In this document: in pieces, positions 10,783 to 49,355 of the stretch
Layout: every line of letters starts with the position of its first letter
Numbering within the stretch: the first letter of the stretch is position 1
Assembly (NCBI GenBank): GCA_001953115.1
Contig: LSSL01007710.1
Span: forward strand, 1 to 63,227
Direction: 5' to 3'
Source: Smittium mucronatum
Taxonomy: Eukaryota > Kickxellomycota > Harpellomycetes > Harpellales > Legeriomycetaceae
Length of the DNA stretch: 63,227 nucleotides
The notes under the pieces: model-generated
What the model was told of the DNA's origin: nothing
Seen by the model: the letters and a program-made list of their open reading frames with translations, nothing else
Database searches by the model: none
Program-made: the position numbers and the translations under genes

Positions 10783-12463
10783 CAAGTGACACTTTTATAG
10801 TAAAATTGATGGTGGATTCCCTGAATTTAGTAATGTTGAGACATAGGATAGACTCTATATCAACATTTAATTTCAATGAATTTTACAAAAGAGAGATCAA
10901 TCTTTGAATACTAAATTAAATCAATATTATTTAGAAAAAGTTGATGAAGAAAATTGGGCTTGGGTATGACAATTATTAACACATGGTTTATATAATATGT
11001 AAATCAATATTTAGCTTTTGATTAAACATAGTTTGCTAGAGGTCATACAATGGGAATTCTAGTCAAATCCCAATAAAAGGTAAAACGAGAGTAAAAGCTA
11101 CGATGTTCAAAACAGCTATATGAATTAAACAAATATTACACAAAGTATCAAACCCCAGGGTACTCTGGTAAGGAAATATAATCCATTTCTGATATTTCTA
11201 GAAACTGGATATTTCTTCAGGTTCCCACGGGCTATAATTTTATCTGTTCTACTAAATTTTAACCTAATTATTACTTGGAATTAGCTTGGATATCAAGAAT
11301 TTGAAAAGGATTGTCTAAACAACTACAGCTATGAAAAACATTTTTGGGTTAAATAAAACTTTGAGAAATCAATGGTAACAGAAAAAAGAAAAAACTCAGT
11401 GTGGAAACGAGCGACTAAATTGAATCATACAAAAATGGATAATAGAAAAAATGGCCATAAGTTTACGAAAATCATGACCCCACTTTCCGTTAAAACCCGT
11501 AAATAGAGAAATTTAGCGATCAATTTTCGAATATTTGTATATATTAGCAATCTTACGATTATCATCCATCTGTTGATTAAACACAAAATATTTACAGAAA
11601 TCTGGAGTTGTGTATTGGGAATAGCAAGTTTTTTATTCTTAGAAAATAAAATAAAGGAATACTATTTGTGATAAAAAATTTCCGTATACAAATAATTTTC
11701 TGGCGGATATTGCAAATTCTGGGTAGGTTGATCAAAAGGTATGGAGATGAAAAAAACAGTTCTTGATCTATTTTTCTTTTTATAGGATACAGATTTTACA
11801 TGAGAACAGGAAATTCCAATGACCAAATGATATTTATTTGGACAACTTGCTTCAAACTCAACTGGTTGGACAATAATAACCAACCCTAGATTTTTCCCAG
11901 GAAACCAATTGAAAACTTTTATTAAAAAAGTCTGGATCAGTATGATTAATGGGGGAAAAGCAATGTTGATCTATTGGAAAAATAAAAGTATCTTTTTTTA
12001 TATAATACCCAGCAAATGGACGTTTTGGACAAGATTGGAATGATACGTTTTATTGGTTAATGGTTAAAAGAAAAGGTGGGAATAGACAAGGGCATCTTTC
12101 GGGACCTATAGAGAGTAAGATTTCAAATTGGCGATATGGTAATTTTCAAGCCAACAAAAACAAAACGTTGTATCTATTTACGAATATGTATGGATATTAT
12201 TGGTCGAAAAAAATCGTAAAAAAAAGCATTAAATCCAAACCTGGATTCTGATGACCTTTTGTAATTTTTTTTGGTGGGAAGGGGCAGGGATACAGGTCCT
12301 TGGTAGGAAGACTTCCAAGCAAGCAGAATTCGCAGAGGGGAAAGGCGATGTGGTTGCATTAAAATATGTGTAGCTTTTTTTAAGTTTTTTTTGGTTTATT
12401 ATAGAATTTAAGCAGCTTCAATACTGATATTTTTTTAGAAAAAAAAGAAGTATACACTAGAAG
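10780..12463. other. Upstream flank of the PRPP-synthetase gene, possible decayed coding DNA
   Basis: Base composition becomes more even from about 10.8 kb onward. Short frames occur on both strands (63 aa plus at 12060-12251, 73 aa minus at 11662-11883), but none has a recognisable domain. The composition suggests either decayed coding sequence or the regulatory flank of the gene at 12464. The last 100 bases are T-rich with several TTTTTT runs, which is usual for a fungal promoter and 5' leader. No clear TATA box stands out from the AT background. Confidence 0.4.
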
Positions 12464-13495
12464 ATGCAAGATATAGCTTTGATAGCTGGTTCAAGTCACC
12501 ATGATCTGGCCCGTTTGATAGCCCAGTATTTGGGAATTGCGGTGACGCCCACGAAGCTGGGAAAGTTTTCCAATATGGAGACTCGAGTCGAGATCCAAAA
12601 ATCAGTAAGAAACAAACACGTCTACATACTTCAATCTGGCGGAGGAAACGTTAATGACGATCTAATCGAGCTGCTGATCATAATTCAAGCCTGCCGGTTC
12701 GGCAGCGCTGAAAAGATTTCTGTGGTTACCCCGCTTCTTATGTACTCAATGCCAATGGCCTTGAGAAAAGAACCCCTTGTCGAAAATATCGATACTAAGA
12801 TCGTAACTGGGTACAAGTCCTGGGAAGCTCGACCTGGACGTCTAATTACTAATTTGTTGGAAGCTGCTGGAACCAACCATTTAATCGCTATGGATTTGCA
12901 TCAATCCGAATACCAAGGGTTCTTCTCAATTCCTGTAGATATCGTGTATGCCGAACCTGTGATCATTGAATATATCCGCAAGAAAATCCCAAATTACCAA
13001 AATGCAGTTGTCGTTTCTCCCGACGCTGGTGGCGCGAAACGAGCGGCTTCTATATGTAATAAACTGGATTTGCAGTTTGCACTTATCCACAACACTAATC
13101 AAACCACCTCTCCGCTAGATACTTCTAACGGTGTATACCATAGAGGAAGTTGTTTTATTGGAGATGCTGTTGATCGACCCATTATCCTAATCGACGACAT
13201 ATCAATCACAGGCAATACTCTAGACAAAGCAGCTGATATTCTCAAACGAGGCTACTGCGCTGATATTTATGCTATTGTCATTCATGGGTGTTTCACGAAC
13301 AAGTGTGTTGAGCTTTTGGAAACCAGCCCTATTACGCGAGTTGCATGTACGAACTCTATTGCCCTAAATGAGTGTGTTCTCAATTCTCCAAAGATTGATG
13401 TCATCGATGTATCTGTTATTCTTGGCGAAACTATAAGAAGGACCTTTAATGGTGAATCTGTTTCCCAACTATACAACAGAGACACATTTGAATAG
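12464..13495 (+). CDS. PRS: PRPP synthetase (ribose-phosphate pyrophosphokinase) homologue with degenerate active site
   Basis: A 343-aa intronless frame, full length for a family usually near 320 aa. The start fits because the family begins a few residues before the IAGSSHHDLA stretch (residues 7-16). Both phosphoribosyltransferase-like halves are visible: VNDDLIELLIIIQACR (63-78), MDLHQSEYQGFF (143-154), VSPDAGGAKRA (184-194) and the PRPP loop LIDDISITGNTL (242-253). Active enzymes make PRPP from ribose-5-phosphate and ATP for purine, pyrimidine, His and Trp synthesis. Several catalytic elements are altered here. The ATP-binding FPYxRQ-type motif reads LLMYSMPMALR (91-101) and is followed by an insertion of roughly 17 residues before GYKSW. 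The flexible-loop Lys/Arg pair after the conserved IH is replaced by HNTNQ (209-213). The acidic residue in the PRPP loop (DDxxDT) is Ile. From these changes I infer a regulatory or non-catalytic subunit, as proposed for some yeast Prs paralogues. The frame is intact and its composition is unlike the surrounding decayed DNA, so it is under selection. Confidence 0.93.
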   Translation: MQDIALIAGSSHHDLARLIAQYLGIAVTPTKLGKFSNMETRVEIQKSVRNKHVYILQSGGGNVNDDLIELLIIIQACRFGSAEKISVVTPLLMYSMPMALRKEPLVENIDTKIVTGYKSWEARPGRLITNLLEAAGTNHLIAMDLHQSEYQGFFSIPVDIVYAEPVIIEYIRKKIPNYQNAVVVSPDAGGAKRAASICNKLDLQFALIHNTNQTTSPLDTSNGVYHRGSCFIGDAVDRPIILIDDISITGNTLDKAADILKRGYCADIYAIVIHGCFTNKCVELLETSPITRVACTNSIALNECVLNSPKIDVIDVSVILGETIRRTFNGESVSQLYNRDTFE

Positions 13496-31332: not shown

Positions 31333-31884
31333 CAATTATAAAATAGATTATAATTATAGCGAAAAAAATCCCGATTAAAAAAAAACTCCATAATAAATAT
31401 TTTTATTATAACAGATTCACACTTTCCACACATTTAACTGGCCTATAAATTTAATGCGTGTTTGATTTAAAAACCATCCAAAAAAATGGGAGTATTACAA
31501 AAACTTGTTTTTTTTGGAATATCGATTACTTTTTTAATTTTTTTTTAAACTTCGTAAAACTTCTATAAACCAATCGGTTTATTTTAAAAAAATTAATACA
31601 TAAATATTAGTACTCCAAATAAATTTACTGAACAGAAAACCCCAAATAAAGATTCAAAAAAAAAAAAAAACTGTATATCCAATATCATAATATATTTAAA
31701 AAATAATTGGCCAAAAAACTTTTCACAAAGATAAATAGAATATGGAAATAAAATTTACATAAGTTTGCTCTAACGATGTTACAATATAAACATATTTTTT
31801 ATGATTAACTTCCGAAATAGGATTGATAAAATTATAAAATAATATTTCTGGTTCTGTAAATGTGGATATTTTTTTTAGCATTTA
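31333..31884 (+). repeat. Left 552-bp terminal inverted repeat
   Basis: Exact inverted partner of 33649-34200. Matching stops abruptly on both sides: outward GCAC versus ATAAA, inward after GCATTTA. Confidence 0.92.
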
Positions 31885-33648
31885 AAATTATATTTTTTTG
31901 CCTAATAAATTTATTAGTTCAATTGTTGCAAAAATTTTCTTTTAGAATTAATTTTTTGTACATATTCAGTTTATATAATTTTTCAATGATAAGTTTTTCT
32001 ATTTTTTTATAAATTATCATTCATATTAAATCACTTTTATTTAAACTATTAAATTCATATTTGTAATTAAACTATTAGTAAAATATTAAATAGATAAATC
32101 AACGGATTATTACAGTTATTATTAAGATTCATTATACTTTGAAGAAAAATTATCCGATAACTCTTATTTAGATGAAATTACAGTCTTCAACGAAGTTCCA
32201 AAAAAATGAAAAAAATTTTAAAAAAGGAAATCATACCAAAATATATACTTAAATATGAAGATGGAAAATCTAATCAAATTATCCAATCATATTTAGTCTT
32301 TTCAAATTAAACAGCTATATGGTTTAGTAAAAAATACGTATTGGTCCAATTGGATCCTGATAAATTTATCGATTTTACTGAGTTGAAAAAAAGTAGAAGA
32401 AAGGGAAAATCAAAGCTTTTTTCTTCTATATCTTTACAAATTTTAGATAATCCGTCTTTACTTTGCATAAAATAAAGAATAGCTTAGAAAATGATGGCTA
32501 TTTTTTATCAATTCCATCATTACACAGAGAAATAAAGATATGAGATATTCTCAAAAAAGACTAATAATAATTCCTATAGAAAAGATTTTTCAAATTTTTC
32601 TGAGTCTAAGCAAAGAGGTTTGTAGAGAAATAAAAAATGATTACGATGAGTCATTAATTTACTTTGAAAAACGGGAATTAATATCCATTTAGTTAGAAAA
32701 TATGATTATTCAGAAATCAATTCAAAGGCTGTATGGATTTCTTAGAAAATAAGGTTAAGAATTTGTCTATTCTTGTAAAAATATCCATTTGAGAAATTCA
32801 GTGCTGCAAAATTATCAAAAAAACTCTTTAACACAAGTAGTTTTAATAAATTTTTAAGTATTTAGTACTTCTGTTTTCATTTAATAAGGAATTAAGTTAA
32901 TTTTGGAAGTCTTGGTTATTTGGTTTGATTTAATAGCTTAGATTATGTAAAATATATGAGAAAAGAGAATAGGTGGAAACCCTTTTCTGCGTTTATATAT
33001 GTAAAATTTAAATATTAATGGTATTATTTAAGTTATTTTTTTTTATGGGTTGATTTCTTAAATCACATATTTCAGCGGCAAATAACATTGACTCATTTTT
33101 GGGATTCTGTCGAGGTTTATTTTTTTAAAATTATTGATTATATAACAATAAAATCAATGTATTTTAGCTTACAGATAGTCAATTCAGTTATATAGTGGGT
33201 GAAATTATTCCAGATATTAGCTGATTTCACTAAGCTAATGACATAGCATAAGCGCAAAATTATTACCGACTATTGGGGATAAAAAATTTTTTGTGTTGGA
33301 TATTGCAAGTTTGCACAGATATAAAAATACTAGATCAATAATATCGTCTTCAGGTAATATTCAGAAAATTTGACCTTCGTATTAACCACAGATTAATCCA
33401 ATCGAAGAGTTTTTTCTACAGTAATGTTCAAATATAAATGTTTAACATCACAAGCAACCAATTATGAAACTATTTAGGAGTATGTATTAGAGTATTTTGA
33501 CGATAATTTGTCAAAATATTATAGTAATACGAGTCAATGGATGGATATTGGTATTTTTAAACAAACATTCATATAAATATCGAAAATAGAACAATATTTT
33601 TTTATAAATTTTAACCAATATATTTTATACAGTGAATTTTTGTGATGA
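31885..33648 (+). pseudogene. Tc1/mariner (DD34E) transposase remnant
   Basis: The clearest part is at 33293-33418: VLDIASLHRYKNTRS, whose Asp codon is 33299-33301, followed in the same frame by QINPIEEFF, whose Glu codon is 33404-33406. That spacing leaves 34 residues between them, the DD34E signature of Tc1/mariner transposases (DDE_3 fold; the P-x-x-N-P-I-E box). Downstream, after a one-base shift, comes a C-terminal helix-rich tail ending WMDIGIFKQTFI (about 33541-33570). Upstream to about 32190 the frame holds coding-like Lys/Ile-rich pieces with several stops. Stops at TGA and TAA within the catalytic block mean this copy cannot make an active enzyme. Confidence 0.8.
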
Positions 33649-34200
33649 TAAATGCTAAAAAAAATATCCACATTTACAGAACCAGAAATATTATTTTATA
33701 ATTTTATCAATCCTATTTCGGAAGTTAATCATAAAAAATATGTTTATATTGTAACATCGTTAGAGCAAACTTATGTAAATTTTATTTCCATATTCTATTT
33801 ATCTTTGTGAAAAGTTTTTTGGCCAATTATTTTTTAAATATATTATGATATTGGATATACAGTTTTTTTTTTTTTTTGAATCTTTATTTGGGGTTTTCTG
33901 TTCAGTAAATTTATTTGGAGTACTAATATTTATGTATTAATTTTTTTAAAATAAACCGATTGGTTTATAGAAGTTTTACGAAGTTTAAAAAAAAATTAAA
34001 AAAGTAATCGATATTCCAAAAAAAACAAGTTTTTGTAATACTCCCATTTTTTTGGATGGTTTTTAAATCAAACACGCATTAAATTTATAGGCCAGTTAAA
34101 TGTGTGGAAAGTGTGAATCTGTTATAATAAAAATATTTATTATGGAGTTTTTTTTTAATCGGGATTTTTTTCGCTATAATTATAATCTATTTTATAATTG
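33649..34200 (-). repeat. Right 552-bp terminal inverted repeat
   Basis: Exact inverted partner of 31333-31884. Confidence 0.92.
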
Positions 34201-36479: not shown

Positions 36480-39400
36480 TATATTGTGGTTATAATGAAC
36501 ATATATCCTTATATTTTTCCAGAAGAAAACCATTGGAAAAATACAGAACTCAAAAGCAAAACCATAGCTGATTTTGAGCGTATAAAATGGCATTATAATA
36601 AAAAAATTTGTTTTAATAGAAGTTTTATATTCCTAATAAAACTATTTTTAAAAAATGAAAATAATTCTATTATAAAACCTGTTTAATATTATCTGAGGAA
36701 ACAGAAAATTTTATTAAACGAATATTTGAAGAAATATTTACAATTAACCATATAATGTAATTGAGTTCATATATAAAACCTGGCAGATCGTAGCTCACTT
36801 ATGAAAAAATTTATACGAAATTTTCAAAAAAATACACATAATATTCGATATTATAAATAAAGACATGATAAATACATATCCGTTATTAGTTTTTAAAACA
36901 CCTATAGTTTTAGGGTTGCCATATCTCATAAAAGATAACACCAGAATAGACTGAATAACTCAGAAATTTAATGTTAAAAAGAATCCAATTTTGAAAAAGA
37001 AAAATGGAGAAAATCTGCACTAAAACTTATCTTTGGATTACCTAGTGAAATAAAGCCATCGGAATCGAATTCCGAATCTGAAAATTTAAATATTGAAGGG
37101 AAACAATTGAATAAACTTATATAGAGAAAGAAACGTCTGTGAACAAGAGCCAGCCAAAAATGTCACCAAAACCTTCATACAAAGTATAAACTAACTGAGG
37201 AGGTAAAAATGATTAAAAAACTATAAACTTGCCAAAATATAAGAAATTAGAATCAATACTGAGACTTTAGACGGCCTTCCAAGCGAATGAACAGAATTAA
37301 AGAAAGTATTAAGTAGGAAAGATACAGAAAAAATACATCCATATCGAAAATATGAATAAACAGTAGATTTAACTCCTATTTCAAAGCGATATAGGGACCC
37401 AATTTACTCTTTACCTTAAATAGAAATGATAGGGATGAAGAAATAAGCCGATAAAAATTTGAAAATATGATTTATTAGATCATGAAAACCCACTGCTGGA
37501 TATCAAATTATATTTACCTATAAAAAGGATCTATATTTGATTTTATGCTTAAACTGTCTATAGTTCAATAATATAAAGATAAAAAACAGACCCCCACTAG
37601 TGATAATCGAATATTCATTTTGCAGGCTGATTCAAGAAAACATTTTCACTAAATTTGACTTATGCATTATATAAAATCTTATTCAAATACAAGTATGATA
37701 TGAATGTAAAAACACTTAAGATACCTACATGGTTATTTGGTATATCAAGAGATACCATTTTTTTCTGACAAAATCCCCTAAAAAATCCAAAAAAATTATA
37801 AATGGTTTACTACTAGACGTTTTATATACAAAGAAACAGCTTATATGTATGGAAATTTGATTCAATGTAAGAAAAGCCGCGTAAAATACCCTGAGTTTTA
37901 AATTGGTACTGAACCGAGCTCAAAAAAAACATACTATTTAAAATCGGATAAATGTAAATTAAAGCAAATTAAATATAATTTCTTGAATATTTTCCAATAA
38001 ATATAAGGGGAAAAAATGACCTTGAAAAGGTCGAAAATTTATAATAATGTAAAAACCCAGTTTTAGTCAAGAAACAGAATTTTTTATGGTTCGAAATTAT
38101 TGCAAAAATTTTATAACTAGAATTTCAAAAACTGCACTACATCCCACCTATCTAAAAAATAAAAACACTATTTTTAAATTGAGCCGCAAATTCTAAGCAA
38201 ATTCTAATTATTTGGTTTGGTTTGGACCTTTTTCTACTCCCCTGTACTCAAATACTTAGATTCTAGCAAAAAAATAATTTTAGAGACTTGTAACTCATAT
38301 TTCGTAATAAAGGCTGTATTTTTACAAGAAGAATTCAATGGTGGTCTTAATGCGGTATCATATCCATCCGAGAAACTCTCGGCATTAGATATAAACTATG
38401 GATTATAATATAAAAACTCTCAAAATAGTTAAAGTTATAAAATAATGGCTCCAATATATGGATAAAGTTAGCCACAAATTTAGTGAATTTATGGACCGAA
38501 AAAGTTGGGAAACTTCAGAAACCCTAAAACTTTGGAAATTGGACGTGCTATATTGAAACCTGTGTTCAACAGTTTAGATTCAGAACTAAAGTTTTGGACC
38601 GAAAAAATCGAATATAAACCTGGTTTTATATCGATTAGGTCAAAATTCAAGGACAGGAAACCAATTGAAAATAATACTCTAAGGCTCTGAAATTTTTTTT
38701 AGTCAACTTTGGCCTCAATTATGTAAAAAAAATATTATCTAAGAAAACTGATTTGGTGCAACACTCAATAAATAAAATTTAAAACTCAAACGAAAATAAT
38801 AGATAATAACAACAGAAACCGGAGAATAAAAATTAAGGATAAAAATTAAACTAGAAAAAAATAAAAAATTTAATTTTTTATAACATACTGTTTTTTCAAA
38901 AACTATATACCTTTTTTAAGTGGATTTTTTTTTCAGGCCTATGAAAATAATAATATAGTCATATTTTAAGCCCTATACAGTCCGAAAATAATAAAAAAAT
39001 AGAAAGATTAAATTAAATGCTTCTCTCCGAAATTTCAATACACCCAAAAGACTTTGGGACTCAATTTTTTGGGGCTTTATTGTATAACTCTCGAAATTCA
39101 AAGAATATTCAAAAATATTTGAACTAAATGGCTTATTTAACTAAATGATAATTTTAATTTTACTGAGGAAACTTCCATAACATAGAAAACTCGTGGATCT
39201 TCTAATCAAAAACTTGTTTTCCCAATATTTATCCCAAAATGTAATGCTTTATGATAAAGGGACTCAATTCACTGCAAATTTATATCAAGTAATAACGAAG
39301 TTTTTCAATATCAAGATCAATATTTTATCGAGCTTCCAGTCAGAAACATAAGGTCGGTAATAAAAGATAACCCCACCCCCCAGAAAACCATTTTCGCTGT

Positions 39401-39720: not shown

Positions 39721-40657
39721 TCAAAGTCCATCGCTCCATCAAAAAACTAGATCACAGTTTCATTTGTAATATTAATTATGACAATTTTAAATTAGACCTT
39801 CCAAACATTATTTGTATCCAACAATTACGAGCTTTCGCACAATATCCTGTATCTCTTTGTTAGAAAATCGTCTCAAAAATACCAGTATAGATAAATTAAC
39901 CTACCCAATACATCAAAAATAAGCCTTATAGCAAGAATAAAGTGTAGAAAATAAAATAAAATACCAAATTTACCGCAATTCTAAACCCCATTACCTGATA
40001 AAAATTGAATTTATATAAAGAATGATATATAAATTAGCCAGTGGAAAAAAATATAAACATTGATGAAGCTTGGCTGTTACAAAAAAAATAACTGAAAAAA
40101 CGAGTACTTATTCTATATCAATTCCAAGAAAAAAATACAGCTTTTTATCAACCACCATAACCACCCCAATAGATAAAATTTTAAATTTATAATTAATAAC
40201 AATGTTTTTCGTCCGTCCTTAAACTGATGCAACAAAGAGAGGGAGTAAGGGTGAAGTATCGAGAGTGATTTAGTATGTGCTAGCAATTTTGTTTTATATT
40301 TTCTGATATTCAAAGTATGCCTTACTAAGCACTAAGGGAAAATAACTTTGATTATTGAATGGTGAAATAGTGTCATAATTCAATAGTTTACCACACTATA
40401 CCCAAATAACAAGCCTTAAATAGCATAGATGCTGATCACAATAATTTCAAAGTTTATAAGAACTGCAATTTTGATTATAAATTCATATTTTCTATATATA
40501 TATATAAATACAGCAAAATACCACATAGGAAATATTATTATGTTCAAAGACATTCATCTTTATAATATACCACCAATAAATTTACATAACATTCCTTAAG
40601 TATACCCATATAACCCTTTTTTAGCTAAAAACTAATGTCAGAAGTAATATATATGTG
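39721..40657. other. AT-rich spacer between transposons
   Basis: No gene seen. A 66-aa minus frame (40113-40313) has no recognisable domain. The segment may include the gypsy element's 3' end. Confidence 0.45.
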
Positions 40658-41547
40658 TATGTGGTATATTTCTCCTAAGTATTATTATCCAAAATCGGTA
40701 AATTTGTTCCTTATGTATTTCCGTTCACAAATTGGTGATTTTTATTTCTATGCGTATACGAACCTAAATTATATTTTTCATACAATTATAATCGGAATAA
40801 ATGAGAATAAATAAAAATAAACCGATTTTCCTTTGTATATTTTAAATATTTCCAACAATAAAACGTAAAATATAGAATATTAAGATGATATATCAATTTT
40901 TTCGGTAGGAAAAAAAATGCAAGAAAAAAAAAGCACCAGAAAATCCCTTAAGCAATCTTAAAATTTAAATATGAAAATACACAAAGATAAAAATATCAGC
41001 GATTTCAGATTAAGAGAAATAAGAGAATAAAAAAAAAGGATGAGCATTTTATAACAACAGAAAACTAAAACTAAACTCAGACATAAAATTCTTTATTATT
41101 AAACCAAATATAAAATACAGATATTCTGTCGCTTAATCAAGATTTAACACTTTTGAACTAAATTTTATTATTTTCTAAGAGATTCAAGGAAAACGAAAAT
41201 GTAAACTAGATCTAAATTATTATTTTTTCAAATATATTCACTTAGCTTATACCTAAATTTGGACTACCGCATAGCAAAATTCAGCTTTAATTTAAACCCT
41301 GGTAATATGAAATAACCAAACTTAGACTGGTCCCTATATTTTCTCAAAGGCGCATAAATTCTCACAAAAAATACAATTTCTTTGCTAAGTTATCATCATT
41401 ATAATTAAGTATATTGAAGTTTTTAACATTATTCAGAAATTTCTTTTCATACTTTTAAACATTTTTTCATATATTTAATTATCGATAGGTGTTGATACAC
41501 TGGTTATCAGTTATATCTGATTTAATTATTTGATAATAACTTATAAA
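40658..41547 (+). repeat. Left 890-bp terminal inverted repeat
   Basis: Inverted partner of 43561-44450; matching ends at TATGTGG outward and AACTTATAAA inward. Confidence 0.92.
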
Positions 41548-41743
41548 ATTCTTTACTATTTTTTATTTTATTTAAAAATTTCCATTAATAAAAATTTGAT
41601 TTTAATGTTTATTAAATAAGTCACCACTCGTTCTTGGGAAATAATATTACAAATTTTAGAAGTTATGATTAATCCGTTTGAGATAATATCGTATTTTTTT
41701 GAAATTATTTTTGAATTACCATTATCTTTTTCTTCAGCCTCTT

Positions 41744-43400
41744 TTAAGCGGAGAATTTAAATTCTACTCCTAAAATATGCCCTTGAATATTTCTAAGTGC
41801 TCCATTTATTGATATTTTATTATCTTTTATTTCTATATACTCACCGCTTTCTGATGAGTATAAGTTTTTTTTTAGCCTTATCTCTAGGATACCGAATTCA
41901 GTTCCTATTTGATAATGATCTCTCACAGAATTTATTACCCTTCCAAGCAAAAAAATCTTTCATATTATGTTTTGGTCTTTTTTTGGGATTTTTATTTTAA
42001 CTTTATCTCCAATATATTCAGTTTTTATTCAGTTATTATTACCTCTTATCATTTTTTGTGGATTTATTCTTCGCTCTTTCATAACTGTGACAATATATTG
42101 CTAGATTTAGATGATTTTTCAATATGGTATATGTTTTTTTTATAAGATATCAAATTTGTTGCAATTATATCCTTATAAGTATTTTGGTCTATTGCGATGT
42201 TGGAATTATGGTTTTATATGGAATAATTATAAATGTTTTTTTGATTGTTTTTCGTGGCTTGATTTACACTCTAAGCTCTAGTAATTTCTGAAACCTTTTT
42301 AATAATATCAGTTCTAATCTTTCCAGAGCTGGTTATCTAATGTTTATTTCAGTTTTTTCGATGTTACTCCCATTAATATTTATAACAGGTATAATTTTTT
42401 TTTATTTTACTGTCAAAGAATTATCTGATAAAAAACTAATCTCGGTGGAAGAGTTTTTTAAATAAAATGCTCTCGATGGAGGAATATTCACTCTCCTAAT
42501 CTTTGTCGAATACTTAAAATATGAACAGTAAGATAATAATGCATTTTTTTTATAAAATTAAATTTTAAATGGTTTAAAATTTCATGTATGAGTTCAATCA
42601 AAGAAATTAAAATATTTATATAGTTCTAAAAATTAAAAATACCTGACCCAACGGTTTTCCCCAGTTTCTTCTATCAGAGAATTTATCCTGAGATAAAGTT
42701 TACTATATGCCTATTCCACAATTACATTGGTTTTTAGGTGCCTCGGTAATATAAATATAGGATTTTTTTCCTTTTATAACCAAAAAAACCACCTATAAAT
42801 TATACACTGATAAACTATTTTCTATTATCAACTTGAATAAGTTTAGATGAATTTGAAAAATTGTATATAAAAAAACTTTAGAGTGTTTAATACTTCATTT
42901 TCAGATTTATTTTTTAAGGGATAGATCTATTTGAAGTGACTATAATAGTAAAAAGCGTGAAAAATCTACTTAAAATCTCCTCCGGGCGCACTTCTCATGT
43001 CTATTAGATTTATTTCTATTCCCTGAAGAGTTTTTTCTGATTTAACTTGAATCACAAGTTTAATTTTTTTCTAATAAAGTTCAATTTTTAGCACTTAAGG
43101 TGAGATTTGACAAAAGCATTAAACATAACCTGTATTGCGCCATAGATACAACTTGGTACACGTCTATAAGTTTTTCCCACTCCTGGATGGGTTATTCCAT
43201 AATTTATTCCTTTTATAGATTCTAAAAATTCATCTTCAGTAATAATTATTAATTATTTGATTTCATGTGTAATATGGTCTCGCTTTTTAAGCAGTAATAT
43301 CTTTTCATGTTTTTTAGTTTTCCCTATGCTATATTTTTCTCGAGTCCTGAAAATTCCTCCACATACTCTTTAATATCTCCATTCAAAATAATGGATTTTT
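41744..43400 (-). pseudogene. Ginger-like integrase/transposase, inactivated
   Basis: Read on minus from about 43.23 kb: a stretch ending DEFLESIKGINYGITHPGVGK is followed by KSHLKC, consistent with an H2C2 zinc finger. Then INLIDMRSAPGGDFK (about 43010-42965) opens the rve integrase core with its first catalytic Asp, next to a TAG where relatives have Trp. A decayed VDNRK...F near 42830 is the second Asp block. The C-terminus, open at 41744-41950, follows GDKVKIKIP and reads HYQIGTEFGILEIRL. That is the conserved tail of cellular integrase relatives such as KRBA2/SCAND3 and Ginger2-type transposases. In living elements the enzyme cuts and joins the terminal repeats. Only a modest number of stops and shifts separate it from an open frame. 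The third acidic residue could not be placed. Confidence 0.78.
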
Positions 43401-43560
43401 TGGAATCAAACTTGGATTAAATAAGAAAAATTTATTTGTGTATGCCTGAAATCGCTTTACAAACAAAAAAATTTTGAATTTATTTATATTTATTAATAAT
43501 TAATTAATATTTGTGTAAAATACTGTATTAAAATTATTTTACAGATAATTGAAATAATAA

Positions 43561-44450
43561 TTTATAAGTTATTATCAAATAATTAAATCAGATATAACTG
43601 ATAACCAGTGTATCAACACCTATCGATAATTAAATATATGAAAAAATGTTTAAAAGTATGAAAAGAAATTTCTGAATAATGTTAAAAACTTCAATATACT
43701 TAATTATAATGATGATAACTTAGCAAAGAAATTGTATTTTTTGTGAGAATTTATGCGCCTTTGAGAAAATATAGGGACCAGTCTAAGTTTGGTTATTTCA
43801 TATTACCAGGGTTTAAATTAAAGCTGAATTTTGCTATGCGGTAGTCCAAATTTAGGTATAAGCTAAGTGAATATATTTGAAAAAATAATAATTTAGATCT
43901 AGTTTACATTTTCGTTTTCCTTGAATCTCTTAGAAAATAATAAAATTTAGTTCAAAAGTGTTAAATCTTGATTAAGCGACAGAATATCTGTATTTTATAT
44001 TTGGTTTAATAATAAAGAATTTTATGTCTGAGTTTAGTTTTAGTTTTCTGTTGTTATAAAATGCTCATCCTTTTTTTTTATTCTCTTATTTCTCTTAATC
44101 TGAAATCGCTGATATTTTTATCTTTGTGTATTTTCATATTTAAATTTTAAGATTGCTTAAGGGATTTTCTGGTGCTTTTTTTTTCTTGCATTTTTTTTCC
44201 TACCGAAAAAATTGATATATCATCTTAATATTCTATATTTTACGTTTTATTGTTGGAAATATTTAAAATATACAAAGGAAAATCGGTTTATTTTTATTTA
44301 TTCTCATTTATTCCGATTATAATTGTATGAAAAATATAATTTAGGTTCGTATACGCATAGAAATAAAAATCACCAATTTGTGAACGGAAATACATAAGGA
44401 ACAAATTTACCGATTTTGGATAATAATACTTAGGAGAAATATACCACATA
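43561..44450 (-). repeat. Right 890-bp terminal inverted repeat
   Basis: Inverted partner of 40658-41547. The 76-aa minus frame at 44294-44524 lies mostly in the repeat and is a by-product. Confidence 0.92.
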
Positions 44451-44899
44451 AAACATATATATCGGAAAATCGGTTGAACTGAACAATAAAAAACATTTAA
44501 AATCTCACTAAAAAAATAGACCAAGCCAAGCTAACAAACTCAAACTCAATTATAGAGCGATTTAATCTTATTAAAATAGTTTCAAACATCTGTACGACTC
44601 CATTTGAGATAATTTTGCTGATAACATCCCTAATCCTCAGTTAGGTATTACTACTGGAAGAAAAATAGTAAAAGAATCTGATAAAAACTACGAGCCCGCA
44701 TCGATATTAGAAATTATAATGAGAAATAAAACAAAAAATAAAACCACCACGTACATGGGGGGGGGGGGCTCCATTTAAATTCGGATGCAGATTAGGTGAA
44801 TACGATGTTGAAATTTAAATCTTCATTAAAAAAATACTGGAACTTATTATTAAATAAAACATGCTTTGAAATGAATTCCAGAAGAAAAATTCTATTCCT

Positions 44900-48330: not shown

Positions 48331-48959
48331 ACTAAAATCTCCAATAAAAAAAGGCTATAAAAAAAAAGGTCTATTTAAAGCGGAAAATCATGTTATAAAA
48401 AATCGCATATTCTCTAAACTTTTTTATATCGCGCGCGTAATTCCATTCGAAAACATTTTTTATCAAAAACGTAAAAATATCATAAATTAATCCATATGGA
48501 TTAGTAAAAAAGCTCATTTAAAAATAGATAAATTAGAACTTGGTATAAACTGTGGGGGTTTTTGAATATTAAATATCTAATACCAATCAAAAAAAAATTG
48601 TTCTTTAAGTGGCACGATTGTTTTTTATCAAATAAATCCTTAATATGAATAAATATAGCAACCCAAAATTTTTATTCGCTAAAGAAATTATAATACAAGC
48701 TTGAAAGAGTGCATATCATAATGGCTAATAATACACTCCTAAAATATCACAAGAACCATACATCAATATCGAGATAATATATTTAAAATAGAAAAAGTAT
48801 ATTCAAAAAAAATTTAAAGAAATCAATGATTGTTCATACGAAAATTTCAAAATTCTTGACCTGAAGAGCATTAGAAAGTTAATTAGAACTAGCCTTAATA
48901 AAAAGTATATACAATGGCAATTAGATAACGAAATATATAACTGCGGAAAATTCTTTGTA

Positions 48960-49355
48960 AAATTCTCGCTTATATGGGGAGATCAATCAGACTATATATT
49001 TACAATATATATCAATAGAAAACCTATTAAATTTTTGGTAACCAGACTAATAAAAGAAAAATGTTTTGATAAAGGTTACATTGGGTTCGATAACATAACC
49101 AATAAGATGTTCTTAGAAGGGAACTCTCCATGCAATATATTTGAAAATAGATTAATAATAAAGAAAATAATTAAGGGTTGGACCCAAATGGAAAAAATGG
49201 GGGGGGGGACTAACACAAACCTAAGATTTAATTGGACTAAATTGCACGATATTGATCTGGATCCAAAGATGAACAGTCATATTTTACTTCTATTTGGGTT
49301 TCTTTTTTTAGAAATCGAAATTTTATCCTGCCAAACTCAAATAACTAAGGCATAG
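48960..49355 (+). pseudogene. LINE C-terminal domain remnant
   Basis: From about 48960 the frame is nearly open: SLIWGDQSDYIFTIYINRKP, then LVTRLIKEKCFDKGYIGFDN and CNIFENRLIIKKIIKGW. Conserved Cys and Trp residues after the RT fit the C-terminal region of a LINE polyprotein, but I cannot name the domain. It ends near the A-rich 3' flank. Confidence 0.55.

What the first reader, a model, noticed from the sequence alone, without database searches (positions are those of the whole stretch)
40658..44450. Ginger-like integrase transposon with 890-bp terminal inverted repeats
A retroviral-type integrase with no RT, flanked by inverted repeats that occupy nearly half the element, is an uncommon design. 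The C-terminal GTEFGIL block links it to cellular integrase relatives (KRBA2/SCAND3, Ginger2). It could represent an undescribed fungal subfamily.
Basis: partly seen in the sequence, partly recalled or inferred. Interest (0 to 1): 0.8.

Follow-up and report, generated by a model that had tools for sequence, protein, structure and literature searches.

The report
Dead transposon with self-matching end repeats
This is a long-dead jumping gene in a fungal genome whose two 890-letter end repeats are still identical, probably because the cell keeps copying one end onto the other, which would make such relics a natural record of DNA self-correction.

Summary
The inverted repeat is real: arms 40658-41547 and 43561-44450, 890 nt, 100% identical. 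Between them lies a broken integrase gene on the minus strand (9 stops in 268 aligned residues, three frames). It does not group with the ten gypsy integrases tested from this genome, but with 'SCAN domain-containing protein 3' of Smittium culicis, the closest database protein found, and a relative's Cys-rich C-terminus matches SCAND3-type proteins. Six copies in this genome show arms of at least 601 nt (a seventh 202 nt, cut by its contig end), differing 0-2.5% within a copy. At 10 of 10 tips that I could place stands an (AT)n run, the target type reported for Ginger2. Unexpected: within subfamilies the inner parts differ by 22-38% (five pairs) without codon signal, so they drifted as dead DNA; arms differ as much between copies, but hardly within one. 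Recurrent arm-to-arm copying (gene conversion) explains this best; two copies with a truncated arm have lost the identity. Published Ginger2 repeats are 45-297 bp. Verdict: new variant of a known kind. Ginger2 membership is not proven (no named Ginger2 protein at hand), and reads were not available to exclude collapse of small arm differences.

The parts
40647..40654 (.). alternating AT run outside the left arm (target-type tract)
40658..41547 (+). left terminal inverted repeat, 890 nt
   Evidence: 100% complementary to 43561-44450; related arms 67-80% identical in other copies
41747..43452 (-). remnant of one integrase/transposase gene, 44% identical to P0001 over 259 residues of the core, 9 stops, three frames
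41747..41959 (-). C-terminal block with GTEFGIL
   Evidence: 71 aa; relatives in the genome
42969..43070 (-). piece with the first catalytic motif; reads INLIDM where P0001 has IDLIDM (that this D is catalytic is recalled)
43091..43252 (-). piece aligned to the region of P0001 that holds the H2C2 zinc-binding domain
43561..44450 (-). right terminal inverted repeat, 890 nt
44455..44462 (.). alternating AT run outside the right arm

Best explanation
A dead copy of a Ginger2-like DNA transposon with a SCAND3/KRBA2-type integrase: kilobase TIRs around one transposase gene, sitting in an (AT)n target. After death its coding part drifted as neutral DNA, while the two arms were repeatedly homogenised against each other by arm-to-arm gene conversion (the inverted arms pairing in one molecule, or one serving as repair template for the other). 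Shown: the arms, the family, the broken gene, divergence without codon signal within subfamilies, and arms far more alike within a copy than between copies. Inferred: gene conversion as the agent, cut-and-paste movement, and a possible start of conversion at the outer tips.
For: Arms within a copy: 0/890 (window), 6/926 (C105), 22/960 (C1797), 6/601 (C82), 10/649 plus a gap (C1582), 3/739 (C21), 5/202 (C300). Inner parts differ by 22.5-37.8% in five within-subfamily pairs; arms of the same pairs are 67-80% identical. Third-position excess 0.93-1.17 in 14 within-subfamily pairs, all intervals including 1. Nine stops need about 0.1-0.3 changes per site in a simulation, while two 890-nt arms each changed by 0.02 would be identical with P 3e-16. 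Copies with one truncated arm: 21/345 and 50/219 differences. Remaining differences lie mainly in the inner half: 41 of 47 in five copies; with C300 counted by hand, 43 of 52. (AT)n run at 10 of 10 placed tips against 5.5-7.2% background.
Against: No reads were available; the assembly has contig ends inside arms (C1582, C21, C82, C300) and pairs of contigs with identical scores, so collapse of small arm differences is possible. The codon test is weak for the most decayed copies: of the between-subfamily pairs, C1582 gives only 1.02-1.35. Shared stops are slightly in excess (24 against 16.5 expected, P 0.05), so some lesions may be inherited. No GC-biased conversion is seen (arms poorer in GC than the inner part in 6 of 8 copies). 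The truncated-arm contrast rests on two copies. C300 alone has 3 of 5 differences in the outer half. TGTNR fits 3 of 7 tips read by eye.
Confidence: 0.72

Rival explanations
1. Youth: the copies were moved recently in trans, so their arms had no time to diverge.
For: Dead copies can be mobilised in trans; arms are nearly identical.
Against: Cut-and-paste does not equalise the two ends, so moving a dead copy does not reset them; the copies are 22-38% apart without codon signal; among the 139 matches (141 of 234 candidates scored) the only stop-free ones are two short pieces and 11 gypsy-type matches at 21-30% identity, so no source of transposase was seen.
Confidence: 0.1
2. Assembly artefact: one arm's consensus was used for both arms.
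For: Contigs end inside arms; pairs of contigs with identical scores exist; both long inverted repeats of the window are exactly 100%.
Against: Scattered arm differences were kept in C1797 (22) and C105 (6); a 20-30% difference would not collapse; the plan recurs in independent contigs.
Confidence: 0.12
3. Selection keeps the arms complementary, for instance because a hairpin RNA from them silences the family.
For: Long inverted repeats can give hairpin RNA (recalled).
Against: Pairing does not require 99-100% identity in every copy, and the arm sequence itself is not conserved between copies. Not tested with RNA data.
Confidence: 0.04
4. A gypsy relic: an integrase fragment caught between two LTRs in opposite orientation.
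For: Gypsy elements are present, and a weak RNaseH trace lies 2.2 kb away.
Against: The ten gypsy rows are one side of a branch (100/99) that leaves the window copy out; six further copies have the same arm-gene-arm plan; the Cys-rich C-terminus is of SCAND3 type.
Confidence: 0.02

Closest known systems
Ginger2/TDD DNA transposons (PMC2836005; parts 1-3 of 4 of the main text read)
   Same: H2C2 plus DDE integrase without RT, TIRs, AT-rich targets (RTATAY), low copy number
   Different: TIRs of 890-960 nt here against 45-297 bp; (AT)n target in which no TSD can be read; a Cys-rich C-terminus of SCAND3 type; place in a tree with Ginger2 not tested
SCAND3/KRBA2-type integrase proteins of fungi and animals (database names)
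   Same: 36-41% identical to P0001 over the core in most listed rows; same C-terminal Cys block
   Different: A separate branch (100/100) in the tree; their element ends could not be seen here
Ginger2-like integrase of sesarmid nimaviruses (PMC10871703; abstract, passages and section 12 read)
   Same: Inserts into (AT/TA)n; TIRs
   Different: 46-base TIR, large viral genome; sequence not compared here
Foldback elements such as Tetris (PMC4079207; passages read)
   Same: Long TIRs (up to 1,735 bp)
   Different: Tandem repeats inside the TIRs, no coding capacity; most foldbacks are referred to Mutator
Maintained inverted repeats: C. elegans gene pairs (PMC1803023; abstract and passages), primate palindromes (PMC3723533, PMC8981503; search listing only)
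   Same: Inverted structure kept while sequence changes; arm-to-arm gene conversion proposed
   Different: Gene pairs or large palindromes, not a set of dead transposons

Membership tests
Ginger2/TDD | H2C2 zinc finger and DDE integrase, no RT | tested here: met
   P0001 and genome copies; the window copy itself is broken, with N at the first motif
Ginger2/TDD | TIRs (published 45-297 bp) | tested here: met
   TIRs present, but three times longer
Ginger2/TDD | termini TGTNR | tested here: inconclusive
   3 of 7 tips read by eye: window, C1582 and left C1797 fit; C1364, C105, C82 and C1456 do not
Ginger2/TDD | 4-5 bp TSD | tested here: inconclusive
   ends lie in (AT)n; no TSD can be told
Ginger2/TDD | AT-rich target, RTATAY | tested here: met
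   AT run at 10 of 10 placed tips, background 5.5-7.2%; part of the run may belong to the element
Ginger2/TDD | no GPY/F motif | tested here: inconclusive
   none seen by eye in the C-terminal blocks; no model was used
Ginger2/TDD | groups with Ginger2 transposases | not tested
   no named Ginger2 protein available
SCAND3/KRBA2-type integrases | integrase core most similar to these, with the C-terminal Cys block | tested here: met
   in the unrooted tree the genome copies with P0001 form their own branch
Gypsy LTR retrotransposon | integrase inside the gypsy group | tested here: not met
   against ten gypsy rows of this genome only
Gypsy LTR retrotransposon | RT and protease in the unit, direct LTRs | tested here: not met
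   no room between the arms, which are inverted
Ginger1 | GPY/F, YPYY, OTU or Ulp1 domain, CCGG targets | tested here: inconclusive
   targets are (AT)n and no OTU or Ulp1 was seen in the Pfam scan, but the copy is too decayed to exclude lost domains
Polinton/Maverick | very long element with DNA polymerase B and structural genes | tested here: not met
   3793 bp with room for one gene; features from PMC5753468, passages

The most novel reading that the evidence does not exclude
A host process in this fungus homogenises the arms of any kilobase inverted repeat, whatever the transposon superfamily, starting from the outer ends at fragile (AT)n tracts and failing once one outer end is lost. A second element in this window (31333-34200, 552-nt arms at 100%, around a weakly matched, decayed DDE_3-type transposase) shows the same pattern. 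Dead transposons would then form a graded natural series for measuring gene conversion between inverted repeats.
Probability: 0.35. Interest if true: 0.78.

Novelty: new variant of a known kind. Interest (0 to 1): 0.6.

Why it matters
Near-identical TIRs are easily taken as a sign of youth. Here copies that are 22-38% apart as dead DNA keep arms 97.5-100% identical. Several independent copies, with neutral divergence as a clock and with whole or truncated arms, would let the rate of gene conversion between inverted repeats be measured against arm length. The family also extends integrase transposons to TIRs about three times the longest in the published Ginger2 table.

Tried and rejected
Gypsy origin: not borne out by the tree. 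TSD: cannot be read in (AT)n. GC-biased conversion: no sign. IMG/VR scan for relatives with visible ends: one weak hit without a long inverted repeat. Rfam (gathering threshold) and tRNA scans of the window: nothing. The second element could not be searched in the genome. Rows dropped: C21, C1333b, C549 and C2850 of 26 anchored rows before the tree; 38 of 120 held proteins were used in it (471 matched, 120 listed). Copies C1636, C1622, C1801 and C2262 were held only in part and could not be tested for both arms; C2667, C1145 and C15 show single arm pieces. Tips of C21, C2667 and C300 were not placed. C300 was left out of the position test. Six between-subfamily pairs were chosen for the intervals; the full list is lower for C1582 (1.02-1.35). 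One search was spoiled by a gapped query and replaced. Papers were searched; in their listings I saw no description of SCAND3/KRBA2-type transposons with kilobase TIRs or of Ginger2 in Harpellales.

Full report
Observation. No stop-free frame in the element exceeds 85 aa. The minus strand holds pieces of an integrase in order: N-terminus near 43452, zinc-binding region, first catalytic motif, remnants of the second and third motifs (QVDN; VE followed by a stop) and the GTEFGIL block at 41747-41959. On P0001 the core is 44% identical, with 9 stops and three frames. The first motif reads INLIDM where P0001 has IDLIDM; that this is a catalytic residue is recalled. No Pfam family reaches E 0.1 in the six frames.

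Host. The genome G000 has 73.8 Mb in 2957 contigs, and the window is one whole contig. The one database protein found with the pieces of copy C300 is 'SCAN domain-containing protein 3 [Smittium culicis]' (P0001; 1578 candidates); with P0001 as query the other named relatives are from Smittium angustum. The best match of P0001 in G000 is 57%, so G000 is probably not that strain. A gut fungus of the Harpellales is likely, but this was not tested with host genes.

Family. DNA searches with arm and inner part found copies on C1582, C1456, C21 and C1364 and an arm on C2667. A protein search gave 139 matches, several per locus, from 141 scored of 234 candidates. Thirteen of them are stop-free: two short pieces (C2427, C110) and 11 matches of gypsy type at 21-30% identity. 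Three further copies that I could fetch, C82, C105 and C1797, have arms of 601 (cut by the contig start), 926 and 960 nt; the C300 locus shows 202 nt up to its contig end. Loci of C1636, C1622, C1801 and C2262 were too short to test. Four gypsy-type loci gave no inverted repeat in the same call, but these too were short.

Integrase. A tree of 60 rows (38 database proteins, 12 copies and 10 gypsy rows from this genome) puts the 12 copies with P0001 on one side of a branch (100/99), the gypsy rows on another (100/99) and the other 37 proteins, fungal, animal and metagenomic, on a third (100/100). It is unrooted, without named Ginger1, Ginger2 or Polinton proteins; seven rows have an odd letter make-up and three have long end branches, the window copy being among the former. 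P0001 also matches PFV integrase in the PDB (E 6e-16). The Cys-rich C-terminus of copy C300 aligns with that of a Metarhizium 'SCAN domain-containing protein 3' (34% over 53 residues, E 1.6e-9 among 120 held proteins).

Ends. At 10 of 10 tips that I could place stands an alternating AT run of 6 nt or more; 6 are fixed by both arms, 4 were placed by eye from arm alignments, and tips of C21, C2667 and C300 were not placed. Background: 5.5% in the window, 7.2% in fetched loci. Ginger2 prefers RTATAY (PMC2836005), and a Ginger2-like integrase of nimaviruses uses (AT/TA)n (PMC10871703). In C105 and C1797 part of the run is inside the repeat and may belong to the element. No TSD can be read.

Arms. 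Within a copy: 0/890 (window), 6/926 (C105), 22/960 (C1797), 6/601 (C82), 10/649 plus a gap (C1582), 3/739 (C21), 5/202 (C300). With one truncated arm: 21/345 plus a gap (C1456), 50/219 plus two gap columns (C1364). Inner parts differ by 28.1% (window-C1456), 31.7% (window-C1582), 37.8% (window-C21), 31.6% (C1456-C1582) and 22.5% (C105-C1797); the arms of these pairs are 67-80% identical. So arms drift about as fast as dead coding sequence, but hardly against each other within a copy.

Neutrality. In 14 within-subfamily pairs the third-position excess is 0.93-1.17, with all intervals including 1; in six chosen between-subfamily pairs it is 1.46-1.63, with all intervals above 1. In the full list the window copy gives 1.24-1.51 against other subfamilies, but the most decayed copy, C1582, only 1.02-1.35, so the test is weak there; window-C1456 and C105-C1797 are the cleanest cases. 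Stops are mostly private (24 shared, 16.5 expected, P 0.05). A decay simulation gives a mean of 4 stops at 0.1 changes per site and about 9 between 0.25 and 0.3; two 890-nt arms each changed by 0.02 would be identical with P 3e-16.

Mechanism. Cut-and-paste movement does not equalise the two ends (established knowledge), so identity needs homogenisation, and gene conversion between inverted arms is the known process (PMC1803023; primate palindromes, listing). The remaining differences lie mainly in the inner half: 41 of 47 in five copies, 31 of 37 without C1582; with C300, counted by hand, 43 of 52. In C82, C1582 and C21 the outermost part of one arm is missing from the contig. Both copies with a truncated arm have lost the identity. 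This suggests, without proof, that conversion starts at the tips, perhaps at breaks in (AT)n. Collapse in assembly may hide the last 1-2%, but not 20-30%.

Second case. The window holds another perfect inverted repeat, 31333-31884 and 33649-34200, 552 nt, around a decayed DDE_3-type transposase (E 0.002, below Pfam's cut-off). Its genome search did not complete.

Verdict. Observation confirmed, interpretation partly supported, a new variant of a known kind. The main interest is the concerted evolution of the arms of dead transposons.

Noticed in passing
window 31333-34200: A second perfect inverted repeat (552-nt arms, 1764-nt spacer) around a decayed DDE_3-type transposase (E 0.002, below cut-off).
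   Followed up: partly
window about 38238-38408 (+): Weak RT-RNaseH trace of a decayed retroelement, 2.2 kb outside the element and on the opposite strand.
   Followed up: no
G000 contig pairs C203/C1256, C965/C2912, C2342/C2815, C1635/C1830, C191/C1739, C2247/C2631: Pairs of matches with identical scores and lengths: redundancy in the assembly, or recent duplication; sequences not compared.
   Followed up: no
G000:C336:24269-24966 and C1582:2421-4000: The end of C336 repeats, inverted, 592 nt of the right flank and 106 nt of the right arm of the C1582 element (99.86%): either an inverted duplication that extends beyond the element or redundancy of contig ends.
   Followed up: partly
window about 11-22, 27-31 and 53-59 kb against the rest: GC compartments: about 30-43% in the islands with long frames (for example a PRPP synthetase-like frame at 12461-13495), about 17-29% elsewhere.
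   Followed up: no
window 45-49 kb: Strong A over T excess on the + strand (AT skew 0.18-0.27), with a 187-aa frame at 48792-49355 that was not identified.
   Followed up: no
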